Shown: positions 27,995 to 40,003 of the stretch, piece after piece
Numbering within the stretch: the stretch's first letter is position 1
Layout: each line of letters opens with the position of its first letter
Assembly: GCA_005938025.2 (NCBI GenBank)
Contig: VCCI02000003.1
Location: forward strand, 248,001 to 312,000
DNA from: Inquilinus sp. KBS0705
Lineage (GTDB): Bacteria > Bacteroidota > Bacteroidia > Sphingobacteriales > Sphingobacteriaceae
Direction of reading: 5' to 3'
Length of the DNA: 64,000 bases
The notes under the pieces: model-generated
The model's database searches: none
The model's input: the letters and a program-made list of their open reading frames with translations, nothing else
Told to the model about the DNA's origin: nothing
Program-made: the position numbers and the translations under genes

Positions 27995-30900
27995 CTACAT
28001 ATTCCTCCTGTACTGCCCGCCAACCTCGTATAGTGCATGGCTTATTTGCCCCAGCGAGCAATATTTACAGGCCTCCATCAGACTGTCGAAAATGTTATCG
28101 CCGGCTATGGCTTTTTGCTGTAGTTGCTTTAATAGTTCAGGTGTGTGTCGCTGATTCCGTTGCTGAAACAGGTGTAGGGCCGCTATCTGGAATTGCTTTT
28201 CTTCTTCGGTAGCGCGTATCACTTCGGATGGGGTAATCGTAGGCGATCCTTTTTTGTTAAGGAAGGTATTTACCCCAATAATAGGATATTCGCCGGTATG
28301 TTTCAGCGTTTCGTAATACAACGATTCCTCCTGTATCTTGCTGCGCTGATACATCGTTTCCATGGCACCTAAAACGCCGCCGCGGTCGTTAATGGCCTTA
28401 AACTCGGTGAGTACGGCTTGCTCTACCAGGTCGGTGAGTTCTTCTATAATAAAAGCACCCTGTATGGGGTTTTCGTTTTTGGCAAGGCCCAGTTCGCGGT
28501 TAATGATGAGCTGTATGGCCATGGCCCTGCGTACCGACTCCTCGGTAGGGGTGGTGATAGCTTCGTCGTATGCGTTGGTGTGCAACGAATTGCAGTTATC
28601 GTAAATGGCATATAAAGCCTGCAATGTGGTACGGATATCGTTAAAGTCGATCTCCTGCGCGTGCAACGAGCGCCCGCTGGTTTGTATATGGTATTTAAGC
28701 TTCTGTGAGCGATCGTTTCCCTTGTACTTATTCTTGATAGCCTTGGCCCATATGCGTCGTGCTACGCGGCCTATAACGCTATATTCAGGGTCGATGCCGT
28801 TGCTGAAGAAGAAGGAAAGGTTTGGTGCAAAGTCATCAATGTGCATACCCCGACTTAGATAATATTCCACGTAAGTAAAACCATTGCTTAACGTAAAGGC
28901 CAACTGCGTAATGGGGTTGGCACCGGCCTCGGCGATATGGTAGCCGGAGATAGACACCGAATAAAAATTACGCACCTTTTTATCGATAAAATACTGCTGA
29001 ATATCGCCCATCATGCGCAGGGCAAACTCGGTGCTGAAAATGCAGGTGTTTTGCGCCTGGTCCTCTTTTAAAATATCGGCCTGTACCGTACCGCGAACGG
29101 TGGCTATTGCGTAGGCTTTTATCTTTTCGTAAACATCCGCAGGTAAAACCTGATCGCCGGTTAGGCCAAGGAGCATAAGACCGAGGCCATTGTTACCGGG
29201 GGGGAGAGCAGCCTCACCTAAATCCTCTCCAAAGGAGAGGATTTTCCTGTTATCTGTTTTTTCACCTCCCTCTCCTTTGGAGAGGGCCGGGGTGAGGCTC
29301 CTGTCAGGTTGGTTAAATAACCGATGTTTTATAGCCTTAACTACTTGTTGTGGATTTCTTAATACTTCGTCGTTTGTAAAACGGATAACGTCAAAGCCTT
29401 CCCGGTTTAAAACATTGGTTCTTGTTTCATCTTCCTCAGTTGTGAGCATATGGTAACCGCCGTCTACCTCAATAACCAGGCCTTTTAGCAAACAAACAAA
29501 ATCGGCTATATAGCCATCTATGGCATGTTGCCTTCTTATTTTATAGCCCGTTTGGCTGTTTCTTAAAAGTTGCCACAATACATTTTCCGCTTCAGTTTGA
29601 TTTTTTCTGTTATCTCTTGAATTGGCTTTTAGTACTTCCCATATTTTAGTGTCAGCAGTGTAATAGCCTATTTTTTTGGCCTCACCTAAATCCTCTCCAA
29701 AGGAGAGGACTTTCCTGTCAGAGAGGTTTTCACCCCCCTCTCCTTTGGAGAGGGCCGGGGTGAGGCTTTGATACCGCGGCCGCTTTAGCCCTTTCTCATC
29801 ATAAACCCTTCTATAAGCAGCCTCTACCAAATGTTGCAGCTTATTTTCGGTGATGTGTTTTTCGCATTGCTGGTCTATGGCGGCATTCATAAAAAAGCCC
29901 AACAGCATTGGTGCAGGGCCGTTAATGGTCATGCTGACAGAGGTGCTGGCGTGACAAAGATCAAAACCGGAATACAACTTTTTGGCATCATCCAGTGTGG
30001 CGATGCTAACGCCCGAGTTGCCTATTTTGCCGTAGATGTCGGGCCGTGTGTTCGGGTCCTCGCCATACAGGGTAACCGAATCAAACGCGGTAGACAACCT
30101 GTGCGCCGGCTGGCCGAGCGATACATAATGGAAACGCTTATTGGTGCGTTCGGGGCCGCCCTCGCCGGCAAACATACGGGTAGGGTCCTCACCCTCGCGC
30201 TTTAGCGGGAATACCCCCGCAGCGTAAGGGAACTCGCCCGGTACATTCTCTGTAAGCAGCCATCTTAATACATCGCCCCAGGCCTCGTATTTGGGCAGGG
30301 ATATTTTAGGCACCTTTAATTGCGATAACGAGGTATAATACAAAGGTTGTTTTATCTCTTTATCCCTCACCTTGTATATAAAATCATCGGCCTTGTATCT
30401 GGCAACCGTTTCGGGCCACTCTTTTAACAAACGTTTGCAATCGGGGTGCAGGTGGTTCTCTAAATGGTTATAAATATCCTGTAGAGACGCGATACTTCGC
30501 GTCTTTTCCTTTGCATCGGTTGCCTGCAAGTTGGGAGACGCAATGTATTGCGTCTCTACGGTCAGGAGGTCCATCGTCCCCCTCACATTAAACATTTGCT
30601 GGGCGATTTTACACTGCTCATCTACCCAGGTGGTGTAGGCCTGGCTGCTTTCGGCAATTTCGGCCAGGTAGCGTATCCTGTCAGGCGGGATGATGTATAT
30701 CTTCTCCGATTCTCCTTCTTGTTTATTGATTCTTGCCTCTTGATTCTTTAAAAGATCTACCCCCGTCTTCTCCTTCACGGTTTTCATAATGGCAGCGAAA
30801 AGCGTATTCATACCCGGGTCGTTAAATTGCGAGGCCATGGTACCGTAAACGGGCAGATCATCATCGGCGGCGTTAAACAGCATATGGTTGCGCTTATATT

Positions 30901-31954
30901 GCTTGCGCACATCGCGGATGGCATCAAGCGCGCCGCGTTTATCAAACTTATTAAGGGCCACCAGGTCGGCAAAGTCAAGCATGTCTATCTTTTCCAACTG
31001 GGTGGCGGCACCGAACTCGGGGGTCATTACGTAAAGCGATACATCGCAGTAATCTGTTATCATCGTGTCCGACTGCCCTATGCCGCTGGTTTCTACTATC
31101 ACCATATCGTACCCGGCGGCTTTGCAAATATCAATGGCTTCCTGCACGTGCTTGCTCAAAGCCAAATTGGCCTGCCGCGTAGCCAGCGAACGCATATACA
31201 CCCGCGGACTATTTATGGCATTCATGCGGATACGGTCGCCTAATAAGGCGCCACCTGTTTTGCGCTTGCTGGGGTCGACAGAGATTATGGCCAGCGTTTT
31301 ATCCGTCTCCATCAAAAACCGGCGCACAAACTCATCTACCAAGCTCGATTTACCCGAACCGCCCGTGCCGGTTATACCTAATGTTGGGGTGGTAATAGTA
31401 GCAGTGGCGGTTGCAGTAGTAGCTGGCAGTTTAGCGGGGTTGCCCAGTTCGGCAGCGGTTATTAGCCTGGCTATCGATTTGGCGTCTGCCACTGCTCCTG
31501 CCACTGCCACCGGGGTGAGGTTATCACAAGCCTGCATCATATCGTTTATCATCCCTTGCAGGCCCATGGTGCGGCCATCATCGGGCGAGTAAATACGGCT
31601 GATGCCATAGGCGTGCAGCTCGGCAATTTCGTGCGGCAGAAACACCCCGCCGCCGCCGCCGAATATTTTGATATGCCCCGCGCCGCGTTCGGCAAGCAGG
31701 TCGTGCATGTATTTAAAGTACTCTACGTGGCCGCCCTGGTAACTGGTAAGGGCAATGCCCTGCACATCCTCTTGTATGGCACAGTTTACCACCTCGTCAA
31801 CACTACGGTTATGGCCCAGGTGTATCACCTCGGCACCGGTGCTTTGCAGTATGCGGCGCATAATGTTGATGGTAGCGTCGTGCCCGTCGAACAGACTGGC
31901 GGCGGTTACAAAGCGTATTTTATGAGTGCTTTTATACGGGGCGATGCTTTCCAT
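27995..31954 (-). CDS. icmF: IcmF-type fused isobutyryl-CoA mutase with embedded DUF559 nuclease domain
   Basis: A 1319-residue B12 enzyme that isomerises isobutyryl-CoA and butyryl-CoA. Domains: B12-binding at about 10-140 with FDGHD for base-off cobalamin; a Thr/Ala-rich linker near 177-191; a MeaB-like GTPase with P-loop [12 protein letters not shown] at about 193-204; then the mutase barrel ([36 protein letters not shown]) to the C-terminus. Two insertions of repeat origin lie in frame: residues 466-491 and 730-915. The second carries a complete DUF559 endonuclease domain between RPRYQ and [10 protein letters not shown]. Without it the protein would be 1133 residues, near the normal size. 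Whether the mutase still works is not known. The promoter box lies 26 bp upstream. Confidence 0.92.
29211..29299. repeat. 89-bp BIME-like repeat, copy 1 (icmF 3' side of the insert)
   Basis: A head-to-head pair of REP units. Each unit is a hairpin (CTCTCC-TTT-GGAGAG), a 5-base linker and the foot GGTGAGGC. The outer ends are therefore GCCTCACC and GGTGAGGC. It is in direct orientation and nearly identical to the copy at 29679, differing mainly in the central spacer. Confidence 0.9.
29679..29767. repeat. 89-bp BIME-like repeat, copy 2 (icmF 5' side of the insert)
   Basis: Same length and structure as the copy at 29211: two CTCTCCTTTGGAGAG-type hairpins head to head, with linkers ATTTA and GCCGG and feet GGTGAGGC. 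Translated on the minus strand as part of IcmF. Confidence 0.9.
30481..30559. repeat. In-frame GAGACGC palindromic repeat pair inside icmF
   Basis: Ends are inverted: GTAGAGACGC at 30481 and GCGTCTCTAC at 30550. Inside are two hairpins, AGACGCGA-TACT-TCGCGTCT and GAGACGCAAT-GT-ATTGCGTCTC. It encodes [19 protein letters not shown] and then TRSIASL in IcmF (residues 466-491), in a linker between GTPase and mutase parts. Confidence 0.8.
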
Positions 31955-34497: not shown

Positions 34498-35129
34498 GCC
34501 CGCTCATTGCCGCGGGAGGGCTAGTTACTTTTCTCTTGATAGAAAAGTAACCAAAAGATCAAGTCAGCGCGATGCTTCCAGCGCTCCCTGCCGGTTCTTC
34601 ACGCTTTTTTGTCGATTGTTCGCTGCGCTCCAATCCATCCAAAAAAAGCTAAACCGACATTCCCGCCATACGCCCGGCCCGCTCACGCTGACAGTAAGGC
34701 CCCGCGCTTCTTTTTCTTTCTTAGTTCCCCTCTCGAGAGGGGTTAGGGGTGTGTTAGTCGCCATGCATAATAAACCGCGCTCCCTGCCGGTTCTTCACGC
34801 TTTTTTGTCGATTGTTCGCTTTGCTTCAAACCATCCAAAAAGCTAAACCGTCATTCCCGCCATACGCCCGGCCCGCACACGCTGACAGTAGGCCCCACGC
34901 TTCTTTTTTTGATTTGGTTTAAACTCGTTCTTCCGCAGCTACGTCAGCAAAGCGGCTTCGGGCGAAAGCGGGTAAAACAATGGTGACCTGTGCGGGGAAG
35001 GATTTTTTGTCTTGATTTATTCACCTATTGTTTGTTTTTTTATAGGTGTTCATGAGCTCCCTACGGTCGGTTTTTGGTTCTTTTTCATCAAGGAAAAAGA
35101 ACTGGGCCCTCCCGCGGCCAAGAGCGGGC
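34498..35129. mobile_element. Non-coding palindromic element, copy B (632 bp)
   Basis: The ends match copy A: CCGCTCATTGCCGCGGGAG on the left and CTCCCGCGGCCAAGAGCGG on the right. Left hairpin: GTTACTTTTCT-CTTGAT-AGAAAAGTAAC (34524-34551). Right hairpin: GTTCTTTTTC-ATCAAG-GAAAAAGAAC (35077-35102). Stem bases differ from copy A but pair, and the loops are kept. About 140 bp of the interior is present twice (from 34581 and from 34777) with a CCCCTCTCGAGAGGGG REP unit (34725-34756) between. Not coding. Confidence 0.85.
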
Positions 35130-35525: not shown

Positions 35526-36341
35526 TTAGGATGTGGAACCTTCATTTTTGGCCTGTTCCCAGGCTTTTTTCAAAATTGCTCGTGAGAGATTCAAAATTTC
35601 ATCACTAAGAGAGTTTAGTAGTTCGGGTTTATCTTTAGGATTTGAAACTGAATGTCTGAAATATTTGTCAAGGGCATTTTCTAGGTTCATATGATCTTCC
35701 TCCTGTTTATTTAGAAATAGCTTGATTTGAAATGAAAATATTCTTGCAGTTTTTAATCGTTCAAGAACATCTTTGTATATTATATCAACCTTTTCGTCGT
35801 TGCCTTTTTCAATAAGCGATATCAATTCTTCTACATAAGTATTAACTAGTGCTACTTCACCATTGAATTTACTTAAAAGCTCCCGCAAATCTTGAATCCA
35901 TGCAATTCTAGCTTGAGAAACGTTATTTGCCCTAACTTGTGTAAGCGTCATTTTAGAGGTTTCTCTAATTTGTTCTCTAGAGAGTTTCAATAACTCCTGT
36001 GCTTGTGCTTCCTGACTTTTTAATTGTTGGGCCGCGTTTGAGGTTTGAACCTTAATCTGTTTTTTTCCTATATAGATTGCACCTAATGTGGATATAACTA
36101 CGACAATTAGTGCTACTAAAGAGGGGGTAATATCTCTGAAGGTATTTGTGTCTTTTTTTAACACTTTGCTTAACTCATCTAATTGAACAATCGACACTTT
36201 TAAAGAATCATTGCCGCTTTTTTTATAAAAAAAGAGTTTGTTTATTGTCGTATCAGATTTTGGATTTTTAATAGATCTGTTTTTTGCGATGTTAAAAGAT
36301 ACAGCAAATACAAATAAAATAATTAATGATATTTTTTTCAT
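35526..36341 (-). CDS. Membrane-anchored coiled-coil protein, last gene of AT-rich operon
   Basis: A 271-residue protein I do not recognise by function. Seen: a hydrophobic N-terminal segment (MKKISLIILFVFAVSFNIA), a second membrane helix near 75-95 (ITPSLVALIVVVISTLGAIYIG), then a glutamine/lysine coiled coil and the segment SQARIAWIQDLRELLSKFNGE, a helical motif found in several uncharacterised bacterial membrane proteins. The C-terminus is helical and cytosolic or periplasmic. Its start overlaps the upstream gene by 4 bp. Base composition is visibly lower in G+C than the flanks. Confidence 0.78.
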   Translation of the reverse strand: MKKISLIILFVFAVSFNIAKNRSIKNPKSDTTINKLFFYKKSGNDSLKVSIVQLDELSKVLKKDTNTFRDITPSLVALIVVVISTLGAIYIGKKQIKVQTSNAAQQLKSQEAQAQELLKLSREQIRETSKMTLTQVRANNVSQARIAWIQDLRELLSKFNGEVALVNTYVEELISLIEKGNDEKVDIIYKDVLERLKTARIFSFQIKLFLNKQEEDHMNLENALDKYFRHSVSNPKDKPELLNSLSDEILNLSRAILKKAWEQAKNEGSTS

Positions 36342-36694
36342 CGTAGAGAGTCAATTAATAATTGAATGGAATTTAATTTCATTCCATAGTCTATCAACAT
36401 TTTATCTGTGAATTTCTCAGGATCTACCCAATATTTGCTTTTTTCTTTCAGTATATCTGTTAACTCCTTTACTTCCTGATTATTAATTTTTTCCAAATTT
36501 TCAGCCGTTCTCAACCATATATTTGACAAAATAGATGAACGTTGGTCTTTATTTAAATTTCGAGTTTCGTTGATATGGAACTTGGTTTGATTAATTGCGT
36601 ATGTGACTTCTTGTATAATATAATTTAATTCGGACTTCCTAAGTCCTGATATATTCAAAATGTTTTTTGTTTGGTAGATAATAAAGTTAATCAT
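36338..36694 (-). CDS. Small helical protein of unknown function in AT-rich operon
   Basis: 118 residues from the ATG at 36694. A TTG at 36772 would lengthen it but overlap the upstream gene by 55 bp, so the ATG is preferred. Sequence is helical and rich in Asn, Ile and Lys: MINFIIYQTKNILNISGLRK, FHINETRNLNKDQRSSILSN, DKMLIDYGMKLNSIQLLIDSL. No family recognised. It is joined to the next gene by a 4-bp overlap, which implies translational coupling. Confidence 0.68.
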   Translation of the reverse strand: MINFIIYQTKNILNISGLRKSELNYIIQEVTYAINQTKFHINETRNLNKDQRSSILSNIWLRTAENLEKINNQEVKELTDILKEKSKYWVDPEKFTDKMLIDYGMKLNSIQLLIDSLR

Positions 36695-36717
36695 ATTAAG
36701 ATATAGTGTAATTGGAG

Positions 36718-37212
36718 TTATTCTGTTTTTTGTAAGTTTATTATTTTGGTTAATATTAATAGACTCCTCCAAAGAGTTAGCGCGATTATTATTAATCCTA
36801 AAACATTGAAGAAATAAATATATTTATGGTTGTCCTCATTTAAAAACAACTTTAATGAATATCCAATCACAGATATAATTGTTAGAGATTTTACACAGTT
36901 TTTAAGGTGTTTTACTGTTTCGAAATACAGGTTAGTAGCAAAAAATATCTCAAAAACAGTATGATCGTCCATTTTCGATCTATTATCAATGCTAGAACCA
37001 CTTTTAAAAGTGATTAGAACTGTAAGTAAGGTTAAAATAAATCCAGCCAATGTCAAGGCAATTGTAGATAAGTCTGAAGCAGTAGTGATAGTATACTGTG
37101 GTTTAGGTAAAATCAGAATATTTTTGTGGCATAAATAATAAGTTGTTCCACATACTGCTAAAGCCAATGTATAATCCCAAACTAATGGTCGACGAAAGTA
37201 TGAATTTATCAT
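36718..37212 (-). CDS. Four-helix membrane protein in AT-rich operon
   Basis: 164 residues with four clear membrane helices: DYTLALAVCGTTYYLCH, STIALTLAGFILTLLTVLIT, LTIISVIGYSLKLFL and FFNVLGLIIIALTLWRSLLI. A short polar loop with KSGSSIDNRSKMDDHTVFE lies between helices 2 and 3. I do not recognise the family. Small multi-helix membrane proteins paired with a soluble sensor are common in phage-defence operons (for example KwaA in Kiwa), but I see no specific sequence match. It overlaps the upstream gene by 4 bp. Confidence 0.78.
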   Translation of the reverse strand: MINSYFRRPLVWDYTLALAVCGTTYYLCHKNILILPKPQYTITTASDLSTIALTLAGFILTLLTVLITFKSGSSIDNRSKMDDHTVFEIFFATNLYFETVKHLKNCVKSLTIISVIGYSLKLFLNEDNHKYIYFFNVLGLIIIALTLWRSLLILTKIINLQKTE

Positions 37213-38195
37213 TCCGCTAGCTTTTCAATAAATTCATCAAATTCAGGCTTTATCAATTCATACCAATCTTTTAGTTTTGTGATTTTAGTCAAATCAAATT
37301 CTTTAACTATTTCTTTTTTCCCTTTTAATAAATTAAAAACTTCTTCATTTCCTTCTTTATCTTCATACTTAACCACAAAATTTTCGAATGCATCTATGTT
37401 AAATGGCCTCCCTTTAAATTTTTGCAATAAATTTATTACCATACTATTTGCCTCCTTGTTAAGCTCAGTGCTTCTAACTGTGTTGCCTGGCGTTTGATAC
37501 ATAGCTTCAAGTTTTATAAATTTTGGCTTAATTCTTTGACCAATTGTATTAATACCGAGAAAATATTGGCCAACTAATTCAGTGTCAAGAATCGCAAGCT
37601 TTTGTGGTTGTACTTTAATGTCAATATTTAAAACATTTTTTAATTCCGACAAAGTTTTATCAATGGATGTATTCATGTGCATAGTTACCTCAGTCGCTTT
37701 AGCTAACCTTAAAGTGTCTCGCGCAACATTTCTTAAATAATATTCTATATCTGATAGCCTTGGGCCATTACTGTTAAATTCTAAACATATTATTGCCGGA
37801 CTTTTACTGTAGTCAATAAAAAAATGGGTTTGTTCAGCTATTGAACCCTGAGCAGCATCTAAAGGAATCAATTTAAATTTGTCAGCGGGTTTAAGCATTG
37901 GAACTCTACCAGACCTAAGTAATGCTATCGTACATCGTATTCTTTTATCTTTAAGTATAAAAACCGATTGTGCCATAAACAACTCTCTACTTCCTTCGTC
38001 AGGTCGGTTATGGTTTCTATCAATTAGATGTCCCTTCCCTTTGTGCAACTCGTTAGTTACATAAGTTATTATCTTAAATAGAATTTCGTCAGCTGATTGG
38101 GCTACGTCATTATAAGGCGTGAATTTTAATGAATAAAAGTGAAATCGTATAGTTGATAAATTTTCTTTTGATTTTCGATTTTCTTCTTTACTCAT
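37209..38195 (-). CDS. Soluble protein of unknown function, first gene of AT-rich operon
   Basis: 328 residues, no signal peptide and no membrane helix. The first 140 residues are mixed alpha/beta (LSTIRFHFYSLKFTPYNDVAQSADEIL, FMAQSVFILKDKRIRCTIALL, AIICLEFNSNGPRLSDIEYYLRNVARD), the end is helical and charged (KITKLKDWYELIKPEFDEFIEKL). The N-terminal half, with a strand-rich core and an E-x-N-x-x-G segment, could be a binding or nuclease-like fold, but no catalytic motif is certain. It leads the four-gene operon. Confidence 0.78.
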   Translation of the reverse strand: MSKEENRKSKENLSTIRFHFYSLKFTPYNDVAQSADEILFKIITYVTNELHKGKGHLIDRNHNRPDEGSRELFMAQSVFILKDKRIRCTIALLRSGRVPMLKPADKFKLIPLDAAQGSIAEQTHFFIDYSKSPAIICLEFNSNGPRLSDIEYYLRNVARDTLRLAKATEVTMHMNTSIDKTLSELKNVLNIDIKVQPQKLAILDTELVGQYFLGINTIGQRIKPKFIKLEAMYQTPGNTVRSTELNKEANSMVINLLQKFKGRPFNIDAFENFVVKYEDKEGNEEVFNLLKGKKEIVKEFDLTKITKLKDWYELIKPEFDEFIEKLAE

Positions 38196-38581: not shown

Positions 38582-38741
38582 AAGAAGTCCATAGTCCATA
38601 GTCCATGGTCGATAGTCAATAGTAGCTGCGATGGCATGGTCGGCAAGAAGTCCATAGTCCATGGTCGATAGTCCATAGTAGCTGCCATCGACTGCCTACT
38701 GCCAACTATCGACTATGGACTATCGACTATGGACTATCGAC
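38582..38741. repeat. Direct and inverted CCATAGTCCATGGTCGATAGTC repeat block
   Basis: Two direct copies of AAGAAGTCCATAGTCCATG with GTCGATAGTC and TAGTAGCTGC (from 38582 and from 38646), and then the inverse GACTATGGACTATCGAC at about 38711-38741. The block can fold into a long hairpin. Confidence 0.8.
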
Positions 38742-39030
38742 CACATACAAATATCGGTACCCGGGTTTAAAGTTTTCGTGACAGTGTTTTGTCACACGGT
38801 TTTTTTGGCGGGTGGCATCCCCCAAAAGTCCAAAAACCAAAACAGGTGTTTGGAATACTGCTTTTTATTTCGTAAATTGGTTACCCTGCCCCCAACAAAA
38901 AAAACGAAAACGCCACAGCGCGGCCAACAAAAAAAACCAAAAATTGCAAAAATTTATAGCGGCACTGTAATGGCGGCTAAAATGCCATTGGCATGGCAGT
39001 AGTCGGGTATCGCCCTCCCCAAAAAATCAT

Positions 39031-39038
39031 TATCTTTG
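39031..39038 (+). promoter_or_regulatory. -7 promoter box next to the radical SAM gene
   Basis: TATCTTTG fits TAnnTTTG and ends 8 bp before the ATG at 39047, so the leader would be only a few bases. Confidence 0.65.
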
Positions 39039-39046
39039 CCCCTCAA

Positions 39047-40003
39047 ATGCAAGCTGAAGACACCACCACCATACCATCCACCTGGGAAAAAGGGTACAAC
39101 AACTATGGCCCCTGGCTAAAGCAAAAGTACCCCGGTCACCGTGTGTTTAAGGTGATTGTAGATGGTGGCTTTACCTGCCCCAACCGCGATGGCAGCAAGG
39201 GTTACGGCGGCTGCACCTACTGCAATGTAGACTCGTTTACGCCCAGCGTAAGCCGCAATGCGCCCACCCTTAGGCAACAGGTAGAAGAGGGCATGGAAAG
39301 GGCCATAAAGGGCAATAAGGCTGATAAGTTCATTATCTACTTTCAGCCCAATACCAACACCTATGCCCCGGCGCACTACCTTAAAATGCTGTACGACGAA
39401 GCCCTGAGCATCAACACCGAAAACATTGTGGGCCTGAGCGTTGGCACCCGCCCCGACTGTATAGACGCTGAGAAAATAGCCCTGCTTGAAAGCTACACCA
39501 ACCGCTTTGATGTTGACCTGGAGATGGGTATGGAGAGCATTTACAACGATACCCTAAACCAGATAAACCGCGGCTGCAGCCACGAGGAGCTGGAAAAGGC
39601 TCTGGCCCTAACGGTAAACACCAGGCTGGATGTTTGCGTACACACCATCTTCGGCTTCCCCTGGGAAACCCACCAGATGATGCTTAAATACGCCGACGAG
39701 ATAAACCGCCACGCGCAGATCAAGTTTGTCAAATTCCACCACCTGCACATCGTAGAGGGTAGCGTAATGGGCGTTAAGTACAAGCGCGAGCCCTTTAAGC
39801 TGTTCAGCCTGGAAGAGTACGCCGACTTCCTGTGCGAACTGCTGCCATTGGTACGCCCCGATATTGTTATACAGCGCCTGTTCGGCCTAAGCGACCGCGA
39901 ACTGCTGATAGCCCCCAACTGGGGACTGAAGAAAAGCGAGATACAGTACTTTATAGATCAGCGCATACTAAGCCGCGGCGTAGTGCAGGGCAGCGCCTTG
40001 TAG
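39047..40003 (+). CDS. Radical SAM protein, YhcC/TIGR01212 family
   Basis: 318 residues from the ATG at 39047, chosen because the promoter box lies just upstream and the longer frame would run into it. Seen: the [4Fe-4S] cysteines in CPNRDGSKGYGGCTYC, whose wide spacing is the mark of the YhcC family rather than the classic C-x3-C-x2-C, then FQPNTNTYAP, LSVGTRPDC, VDLEMGMESIYNDTLNQINR and VCVHTIFGFPWET. The reaction is not known; relatives are linked to RNA or peptide modification. It is likely monocistronic. Confidence 0.9.
   Translation: MQAEDTTTIPSTWEKGYNNYGPWLKQKYPGHRVFKVIVDGGFTCPNRDGSKGYGGCTYCNVDSFTPSVSRNAPTLRQQVEEGMERAIKGNKADKFIIYFQPNTNTYAPAHYLKMLYDEALSINTENIVGLSVGTRPDCIDAEKIALLESYTNRFDVDLEMGMESIYNDTLNQINRGCSHEELEKALALTVNTRLDVCVHTIFGFPWETHQMMLKYADEINRHAQIKFVKFHHLHIVEGSVMGVKYKREPFKLFSLEEYADFLCELLPLVRPDIVIQRLFGLSDRELLIAPNWGLKKSEIQYFIDQRILSRGVVQGSAL

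What the first reader, a model, noticed from the sequence alone, without database searches (positions are those of the whole stretch)
35526..38195. AT-rich four-gene operon of unknown function inside a repeat-rich region: candidate acquired system
Seen: four minus-strand genes (soluble 328 residues, four-helix membrane 164, small helical 118, membrane coiled-coil 271), with 4-bp overlaps at two of the junctions, about one third G+C by eye, in contrast with the flanks, and bounded by palindromic elements on both sides. None has a family I can name. Known: phage-defence operons often pair a soluble sensor with small membrane effectors and lie in such variable spots. Inference: a mobile defence or stress system.
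Basis: partly seen in the sequence, partly recalled or inferred. Interest (0 to 1): 0.72.

Follow-up and report, generated by a model that had tools for sequence, protein, structure and literature searches.

The report
RexAB-like phage-defence gene pair in Bacteroidota
Two of the four genes look like distant relatives of phage lambda's RexA and RexB, a sensor and membrane-channel pair thought to stop phage infections, and they sit in a spot where related bacteria keep swapping in different, partly anti-phage, genes.

Summary
The four minus-strand genes at 35526-38195 are real and AT-rich (30.7% G+C; window mean 43.1%), but they are not one four-gene system. The conserved unit is genes 1 and 2: soluble P1 (328 aa) and four-helix membrane P2 (164 aa). 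In 29 of 29 loci where the contig reaches that far, P2 directly follows P1. P3 and P4 accompany none of the relatives checked.

P1 has no accepted family match, but its model's best solved structure is lambda RexA (Foldseek E 3.9e-6; Z 11.9, next entry 7.7). Profile alignment to RexA beats all 500 shuffles. P2 has RexB's size, topology and position, with weaker sequence support.

Relatives occur behind phage lysis genes, in an archaeal virus, and beside Qat, Septu, type I R-M/AbiD and ThsB-like genes. The site is variable; relatives carry there a dCTP-deaminase defence gene, a candidate defence gene, or unnamed AT-rich genes.

Best reading: a RexAB-like abortive-infection pair, P1 sensing infection and P2 damaging the membrane. 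Function is untested. Published RexAB detection was proteobacterial only; I found no report for Bacteroidota or archaeal viruses. The 'palindromic borders' are dispersed repeats.

The parts
37209..38195 (-). P1: soluble RexA-like protein, 328 aa, proposed infection sensor and activator of P2
   Evidence: AlphaFold model pLDDT 80, pTM 0.72; Foldseek best PDB hit lambda RexA 8twq E 3.9e-6; VIA Z 11.9, next entry 7.7; hhalign to RexA 35.3, above all 500 shuffles
36718..37212 (-). P2: four-helix membrane protein, 164 aa, RexB-like, proposed membrane effector; ATGA overlap with P1
   Evidence: Directly 3' of P1 in 29 of 29 loci; four hydrophobic segments in 27 of 28 family members, the window copy scoring 3, four long helices in its model; hhalign to RexB 24.7, above 499 of 500 shuffles
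36338..36694 (-). P3: small helical protein, 118 aa, lineage-specific passenger of unknown role
   Evidence: No match outside the own genome among 201 family genomes; not next to P1-P2 elsewhere
35526..36341 (-). P4: 271 aa, N-terminal hydrophobic segment, one further membrane helix (74-92), coiled coil; passenger of unknown role, ATGA overlap with P3
   Evidence: One weak C-terminal match outside the own genome among 301 family genomes; hydrophobic segments 1-19 and 74-92
38993..40003 (+). Core radical-SAM gene, one edge of the variable spot
   Evidence: Pfam Radical_SAM; in 96 of 100 genus genomes
27995..31954 (-). Fused methylmalonyl-CoA mutase (IcmF-type), the other edge of the variable spot
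   Evidence: Pfam MM_CoA_mutase, MeaB, B12-binding; found near radSAM in 7 of 16 fetched relatives
38586..38741 (.). Palindromic dispersed repeat, not an element end
34498..35129 (.). Dispersed repeat with inverted arms, unrelated to the right-hand palindrome

Best explanation
P1-P2 is a RexAB-like two-gene anti-phage (abortive infection) module, acquired as AT-rich cargo at a chromosomal spot that carries different, partly anti-phage, genes in related genomes. Proposed working: P1, a probable DNA-binding protein with the RexA/RdgC fold (N-terminal globular part, inserted dimerisation domain, C-terminal helix back to the globular part), monitors DNA or DNA-protein complexes made by an infecting phage; when engaged it activates P2, which opens or damages the inner membrane, stopping growth before phage progeny are made. 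Shown here: the gene pair and its constant order, the RexA fold of the predicted model, the four-helix topology of P2, its phage and defence-island contexts, patchy distribution, odd composition. Inferred from the lambda and Pseudomonas putida systems: DNA binding, dimerisation, P1-to-P2 activation, membrane damage, anti-phage effect. P3 and P4 are taken to be separate passengers.
For: Fold: lambda RexA is the best of 350,542 PDB chains for the P1 model (E 3.9e-6 and 4.9e-5 for its two chains, next 1.3e-3); VIA Z 11.9, rmsd 4.1 over 157 residues, next entry kinetochore Iml3 7.7 and further down RdgC 6.6; RdgC and Iml3 are the relatives that the RexA authors report for RexA itself (PMC11077077). 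In viral models the five best hits (E 1e-13 to 7e-6) are unnamed tailed-phage proteins. Sequence: hhalign 35.3 against a null maximum of 28.5 over 500 shuffles; P1 invariants G144 and K194 align with RexA invariants G109 and K158, the first inside GPRLSDIEYYL / GPTTSDLTDFL. P2 to RexB: 24.65, 1 of 500 shuffles as high. Gene order and sizes as rexA-rexB (279 and 144 aa). Phage context: pair just downstream of endolysin and tail genes in two IMG/VR contigs; pair in archaeal virus GahPV1 (P1 tblastn E 5e-4; P2 profile E 2.2e-9). Defence context: QatA/C/D, PtuA/PtuB, type I methylase and AbiD, ThsB-like near the pair. Variable spot: dCTPase (E 5e-158) and PDC-S60 (E 4e-143) at the same place in two relatives. 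Horizontal spread: P1 is 59-61% identical to four flavobacterial copies but 46-48% to two same-genus copies, and G254 holds two pairs at 84% and 34%.
Against: No RexA or RexB Pfam model matches P1 or P2, nor the other P1 relatives. Foldseek global TM-score to RexA is low (0.28-0.34, rmsd 16.6): parts match but the arrangement differs. hhalign probability to RexA is only 36% and P2-RexB 10%. P2's model has no informative PDB match, and no RexB structure turned up. Most relatives are not beside a cI gene or in a recognisable prophage. Defence neighbours were picked by eye before the PADLOC test (10 proteins from 5 loci) and no background rate was measured. 7 of 10 cargo proteins tested from the spot have no PADLOC match. 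No experiment.
Confidence: 0.7

Rival explanations
1. Butters-type arrangement: P1 is itself the effector and the membrane protein P2 holds it inactive until infection frees it.
For: A Rex-like pair with this logic is described for mycobacteriophage Butters (summarised in PMC12894663). P1 and P2 overlap by 4 bp, as for a controlled pair.
Against: P1's closest fold is RexA, whose role in lambda is sensor and activator; no nuclease or other catalytic family match in P1.
Confidence: 0.12
2. Kiwa-like pair: P2 works like KwaA and P1 like KwaB, sensing phage attachment at the membrane and acting on phage DNA replication (mechanism recalled, not from a call).
For: Same composition in outline: small multi-helix membrane protein plus soluble protein of about 320 aa (recalled).
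Against: No Kiwa model among the PADLOC matches at E up to 10 for P1 or P2 or at E up to 1 for 22 P1 family members; fold search points to RexA.
Confidence: 0.06
3. A phage lysogeny or host-control module rather than defence: P1 biases gene expression by non-specific DNA binding, as RexA does on the lambda switch.
For: RexA acts on the CI-Cro switch independently of RexB (PMC11077077); some relatives lie in phages.
Against: Most copies are outside recognisable prophages, several near known defence genes, and P2 is always kept (29 of 29).
Confidence: 0.12
4. All four genes form one defence operon, P3 and P4 being added regulator and membrane components.
For: Same strand, tight spacing, same low G+C in all four (28-32%).
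Against: The closest relative at the same site, G254, has P1-P2 without P3-P4, and none of the 22 other loci examined has them.
Confidence: 0.12

Closest known systems
RexA-RexB of phage lambda (Pfam PF15969/PF15968)
   Same: Fold of the soluble partner, two aligned invariant residues (G and K), gene order A then B, four-helix membrane partner of similar size
   Different: No match to the RexA/RexB Pfam models; P1 about 50 residues longer; not tied to a cI gene; mostly chromosomal spots in Bacteroidota; no phenotype known
RexABpp of Pseudomonas putida prophage P1 (PP_5643-5644)
   Same: Two-gene RexA-like plus four-helix membrane protein; plain BLAST gave no clue to its function, HHpred and structure did; reported DALI Z 8.8 to 8TWQ (PMC12894663) against VIA Z 11.9 here (different programs and input)
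   Different: Other phylum; anti-phage activity and DNA binding shown there, not here
Sbash gp30/31, CarolAnn gp44/43 and Butters gp30/31 Rex-like systems
   Same: Divergent RexA-like plus membrane protein in temperate phages (as summarised)
   Different: Actinobacteriophages; not compared by sequence here
DUF6731 (PF20505)
   Same: GahPV1 gp18, a P1 relative, passes this model (27.6 bits, cut-off 27), and one Bacteroidota DUF6731 gene (L065) is followed by a multi-helix membrane protein
   Different: P1 itself does not match it; no function is attached to DUF6731
RdgC / Iml3-Chl4 (CENP-L/N) DNA-binding fold
   Same: Same general fold (Z 6.2-7.7)
   Different: Clearly weaker match than RexA; no membrane partner (recalled)

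Membership tests
RexAB exclusion systems | Soluble partner with the RexA fold | tested here: met
   top PDB hit, Z 11.9, on a predicted model
RexAB exclusion systems | Four-transmembrane partner encoded directly downstream | tested here: met
   29 of 29 loci; topology
RexAB exclusion systems | Match to Pfam RexA (PF15969) and RexB (PF15968) | tested here: not met
   No match at E up to 1 for P1 or P2; neither model among the 25 of 27 families shown for the 22 members of the P1 alignment; the lambda proteins match in the same library
RexAB exclusion systems | Sequence homology of soluble and membrane partners to RexA and RexB | tested here: inconclusive
   P1-RexA above all 500 shuffles but hhalign probability 36%; P2-RexB 1 of 500 shuffles as high, probability 10%
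RexAB exclusion systems | Location in a prophage next to the cI repressor | tested here: not met
   No repressor next to the window copy; some relatives are in phages downstream of the lysis genes
RexAB exclusion systems | Dimerisation, non-specific DNA binding, phage exclusion, membrane damage | not testable with these tools
   needs protein and phage assays
Kiwa | KwaA and KwaB profile matches | tested here: not met
   No Kiwa model among PADLOC matches
DUF6731 | Match to PF20505 above cut-off | tested here: not met
   window P1 no match; relative GahPV1 gp18 matches

The most novel reading that the evidence does not exclude
RexAB is not a lambda-type speciality but one branch of an old and widespread sensor-plus-membrane-effector superfamily, which includes the Bacteroidota P1-P2 pairs, DUF6731 pairs and a pair in an archaeal pleolipovirus, and which moves both as phage cargo and as chromosomal defence-island cargo.
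Probability: 0.6. Interest if true: 0.7.

Novelty: new variant of a known kind. Interest (0 to 1): 0.58.

Why it matters
Lambda Rex exclusion is one of the oldest abortive-infection systems known and its trigger is still unknown (PMC12894663). The DefenseFinder survey detected RexAB only in Proteobacteria and warned that its models might be too narrow (PMC9090908 passages), and only five RexAB-like systems were counted in 2026. A large, diverse family with a clear gene pair gives many natural variants with which to map sensing and activation, extends the type to Bacteroidota and an archaeal virus, and offers a function to test for DUF6731.

Tried and rejected
Rejected: palindromes as element borders (dispersed repeats); four genes as one conserved system; weak library matches of P4 to Iso_dh, CARF8_TM and ZorB and of P3 to phrog_12412, which I took for noise (for P4, coiled coil) without further test; scattered PADLOC matches of P1 relatives (AbiO 1.9e-5 in one, PD-T4-9_A 0.0015 in two of 22), inconsistent across members and not followed up.

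Led nowhere: P1 and P2 profiles against PDB sequences (none); P2 model against PDB (nothing with E under 0.6); tblastn in plasmids of P1, the GahPV1 copy and the L038 copy (none); L065 and L041 copies in phages (none); P4 in viral contigs (none); NCBIfam on ten proteins, including lambda RexA and RexB (none); search of 198 phylum genomes for DUF6731 (1 match); 395 phylum genomes with the P1 profile (own plus one); Rfam and tRNA scans of the window (none); papers for 'DUF6731' (0) and for RexAB with 'Bacteroid' (7 listed, judged from titles and abstract beginnings only).

Limits: defence neighbours were chosen by eye and PADLOC-tested for 10 proteins of 5 loci, with no background rate. No complex of P1 with P2 was modelled. 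Kiwa gene sizes, roles and mechanism, and the remark that RdgC has no membrane partner, are recalled. In the scripts P3 was cut one codon short. The site was compared in 16 of the 96 genus genomes in which the radical-SAM search matched, G254 among the 16 but not from that list.

Full report
Observation. The four ORFs, their sizes, the two 4-bp ATGA overlaps and the low G+C are as described. Operon G+C is 30.7%; only 247 of 61,331 windows of the same length reach it, and the lowest (start 35689) overlaps the operon. By gene: P1 31.6%, P2 28.7%, P3 28.0%, P4 32.0%, against 52.8% for the adjacent radical-SAM gene and 47.0% for the NHL-repeat gene on the other side. The four proteins have no match above a curated cut-off in Pfam or NCBIfam and only weak matches in PADLOC and PHROGs.

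The palindromes. Inverted repeats lie left (34498-35129) and right (38586-38741) of the operon. Queries with these stretches find 31 and 11 matches in the own genome, self-matches included. They are different sequences, so they are dispersed repeats rather than the two ends of one element.

What is conserved. P1 was found in 2 of 100 relatives, 15 of 399 family genomes (own genome counted in both) and 10 loci of the GTDB contig scan, all Bacteroidota. phmmer against ORFs of the fetched loci found P2 directly after P1 in all 22 distinct loci where the contig continues (L003/L028 and L004/L029 are the same contigs; L012 ends inside P1; L010's P1 is split by a frame change) and never P3 or P4. 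Adding the window, L044 (membrane partner judged by topology), three IMG/VR contigs, the archaeal virus GahPV1 and a fourth IMG/VR contig (its P1 judged by eye) gives 29 of 29. P3 has no relative outside the own genome among 201 family genomes, and P4 one weak partial match among 301. The unit is therefore P1-P2.

What P1 is. The model built from 22 relatives has mean pLDDT 80 and pTM 0.72. I had suspected a RexAB-like pair before the fold search, from the phage position and the sizes of the two proteins (note). Foldseek against 350,542 PDB chains put both chains of lambda RexA first (E 3.9e-6 and 4.9e-5; next 1.3e-3). Whole-chain TM-scores are low (0.28-0.34). The second aligner gave Z 11.9 over 157 residues, well above the next entry at 7.7; Iml3, CENP-N/Chl4 and RdgC lie at 5.7-7.7, and Iml3, Chl4 and RdgC are structural relatives that the RexA authors list for RexA (PMC11077077, passages). 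RexA has a globular domain split by a dimerisation domain (residues 1-139 and 248-279 around 143-234; section read); the order of elements in P1 (strands and helices to about 172, an inserted helix-rich part, strands at 270-301, a C-terminal helix 308-327) suits that plan. The paper reports that RexA crystallised closed and that an AlphaFold-Multimer model was open, which could explain good domain matches with poor whole-chain superposition; I did not test this.

Sequence support. With 28 P1 and 9 RexA-type sequences hhalign gives score 35.3, E 3.8e-4, probability 36%. Column shuffles give at most 23.8 in 200; block shuffles at most 28.5 in 150 and 24.6 in 150; the reversed alignment gives 11.7. 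P1 G144 and K194, invariant in 22 relatives, align with RexA G109 and K158, invariant in the five RexA sequences; in the wider alignment G144 stays invariant and K194 is at 90% or more. P2 against RexB scores 24.65; one of 500 shuffles is as high (25.4 in a block shuffle), probability 10%. This is weak alone but lies in the matching first two helices. An earlier comparison with shallower alignments gave P1-RexA probability 12% and nothing for P2-RexB.

Phage and archaeal copies. In IMG/VR contigs L046 and L047 the pair lies just downstream of tail and endolysin genes and two further small genes (PHROGs lysis and tail families). GahPV1 gp18 matches P1 (tblastn E 5e-4) and gp19 the P2 profile (E 2.2e-9); gp18 passes DUF6731 (27.6 bits against 27), and one Bacteroidota DUF6731 gene (L065) is also followed by a multi-helix membrane protein. 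The five best viral structure matches of P1 are unnamed tailed-phage proteins.

Bacterial context. Ten neighbours from five loci, picked by eye, were tested: QatA (4e-179), QatC and QatD near the pair in Pedobacter nutrimenti; a type I methylase and AbiD (4e-72) in Allomuricauda; PtuA (1e-97) and PtuB (3e-71) beside the pair in G371; a ThsB-like protein (2.7e-53; 4e-58 to the candidate model PDC-M50B) in Winogradskyella; a weak match in G402; none for an AbiH-like candidate. Other loci show ordinary neighbours (for example L005, L010, L030, L036, by eye). No background rate was measured.

The site. The radical-SAM gene is in 96 of 100 genus genomes. Of 16 fetched relatives, one (G254) has P1-P2 at this site, without P3-P4. 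Seven of the 16 also show the mutase gene near the radical-SAM gene. Of the ten intervals listed, most hold different genes, many of 29-35% G+C; L127, L124 and L134 hold mostly genes of normal composition. Of ten such AT-rich genes from five relatives tested against PADLOC, one is a dCTP-deaminase defence gene (4.7e-158), one PDC-S60 (4e-143), one a weak partial PDC-S42 match, seven none. G370, of the same genus, has a contig of the same length as that of Mucilaginibacter sp. E4BP6, so the window's genus is very probably Mucilaginibacter.

Mechanism. From lambda and P. putida: RexA-type proteins dimerise and bind DNA non-specifically (PMC11077077 abstract and passages); RexApp overexpression triggers RexBpp-dependent growth arrest and membrane damage without measurable depolarisation (PMC12894663 section 11). 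I propose the same logic for P1-P2; every functional step is inferred. DNA binding was not strictly needed for lambda exclusion (abstract), so the trigger stays open.

Papers seen. PMC12894663: abstract, outline and sections 3, 8, 11 and 12. PMC11077077: abstract, outline, passages and sections 4 and 18. PMC9090908: passages. All others: search listings only.

Verdict. New variant of a known kind: RexAB-like in fold, order and topology, outside the reach of the Pfam models, in a phylum where the DefenseFinder survey reported none (passages). Searches that found no earlier report: 'DUF6731', RexAB with 'Bacteroid' (listing only), RexAB with phage defense, homolog, prophage, hotspot (listing; one paper opened for passages).

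Noticed in passing
window 27995-31954 (-): The fused methylmalonyl-CoA mutase carries a DUF559 nuclease-like domain inside it (PF04480, E 1.8e-32, residues 775-878); relatives of 1132-1134 aa (L127, L138) are about 190 residues shorter than the 1319-1340 aa forms (window, L125), which suggests an inserted selfish domain.
   Followed up: no
L138 10289-11878; L128 4988-8095: The same spot next to the radical-SAM gene holds a dCTP-deaminase defence gene in one relative and a PDC-S60 candidate defence gene (metallophosphatase plus nSTAND NTPase) in another.
   Followed up: partly
L125 5068-7149; L129 11168-14881; L130 10658-12181: AT-rich operons of unnamed proteins at the same spot (307+384 aa; 221+179+839 aa; 208+296 aa), almost without library matches: candidates for unknown defence systems.
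   Followed up: no
L048 7219-8683: Archaeal pleolipovirus GahPV1 gp18-gp19 is a P1-P2 pair, both annotated hypothetical.
   Followed up: partly
L010 9983-10962: P1 in Agriterribacter humi is split into two overlapping frames, a possible decayed copy or sequencing error.
   Followed up: no
L065 1480-2848: A DUF6731 gene in a Bacteroidota genome is followed by a multi-helix membrane protein, which suggests that DUF6731 proteins also work in pairs.
   Followed up: no
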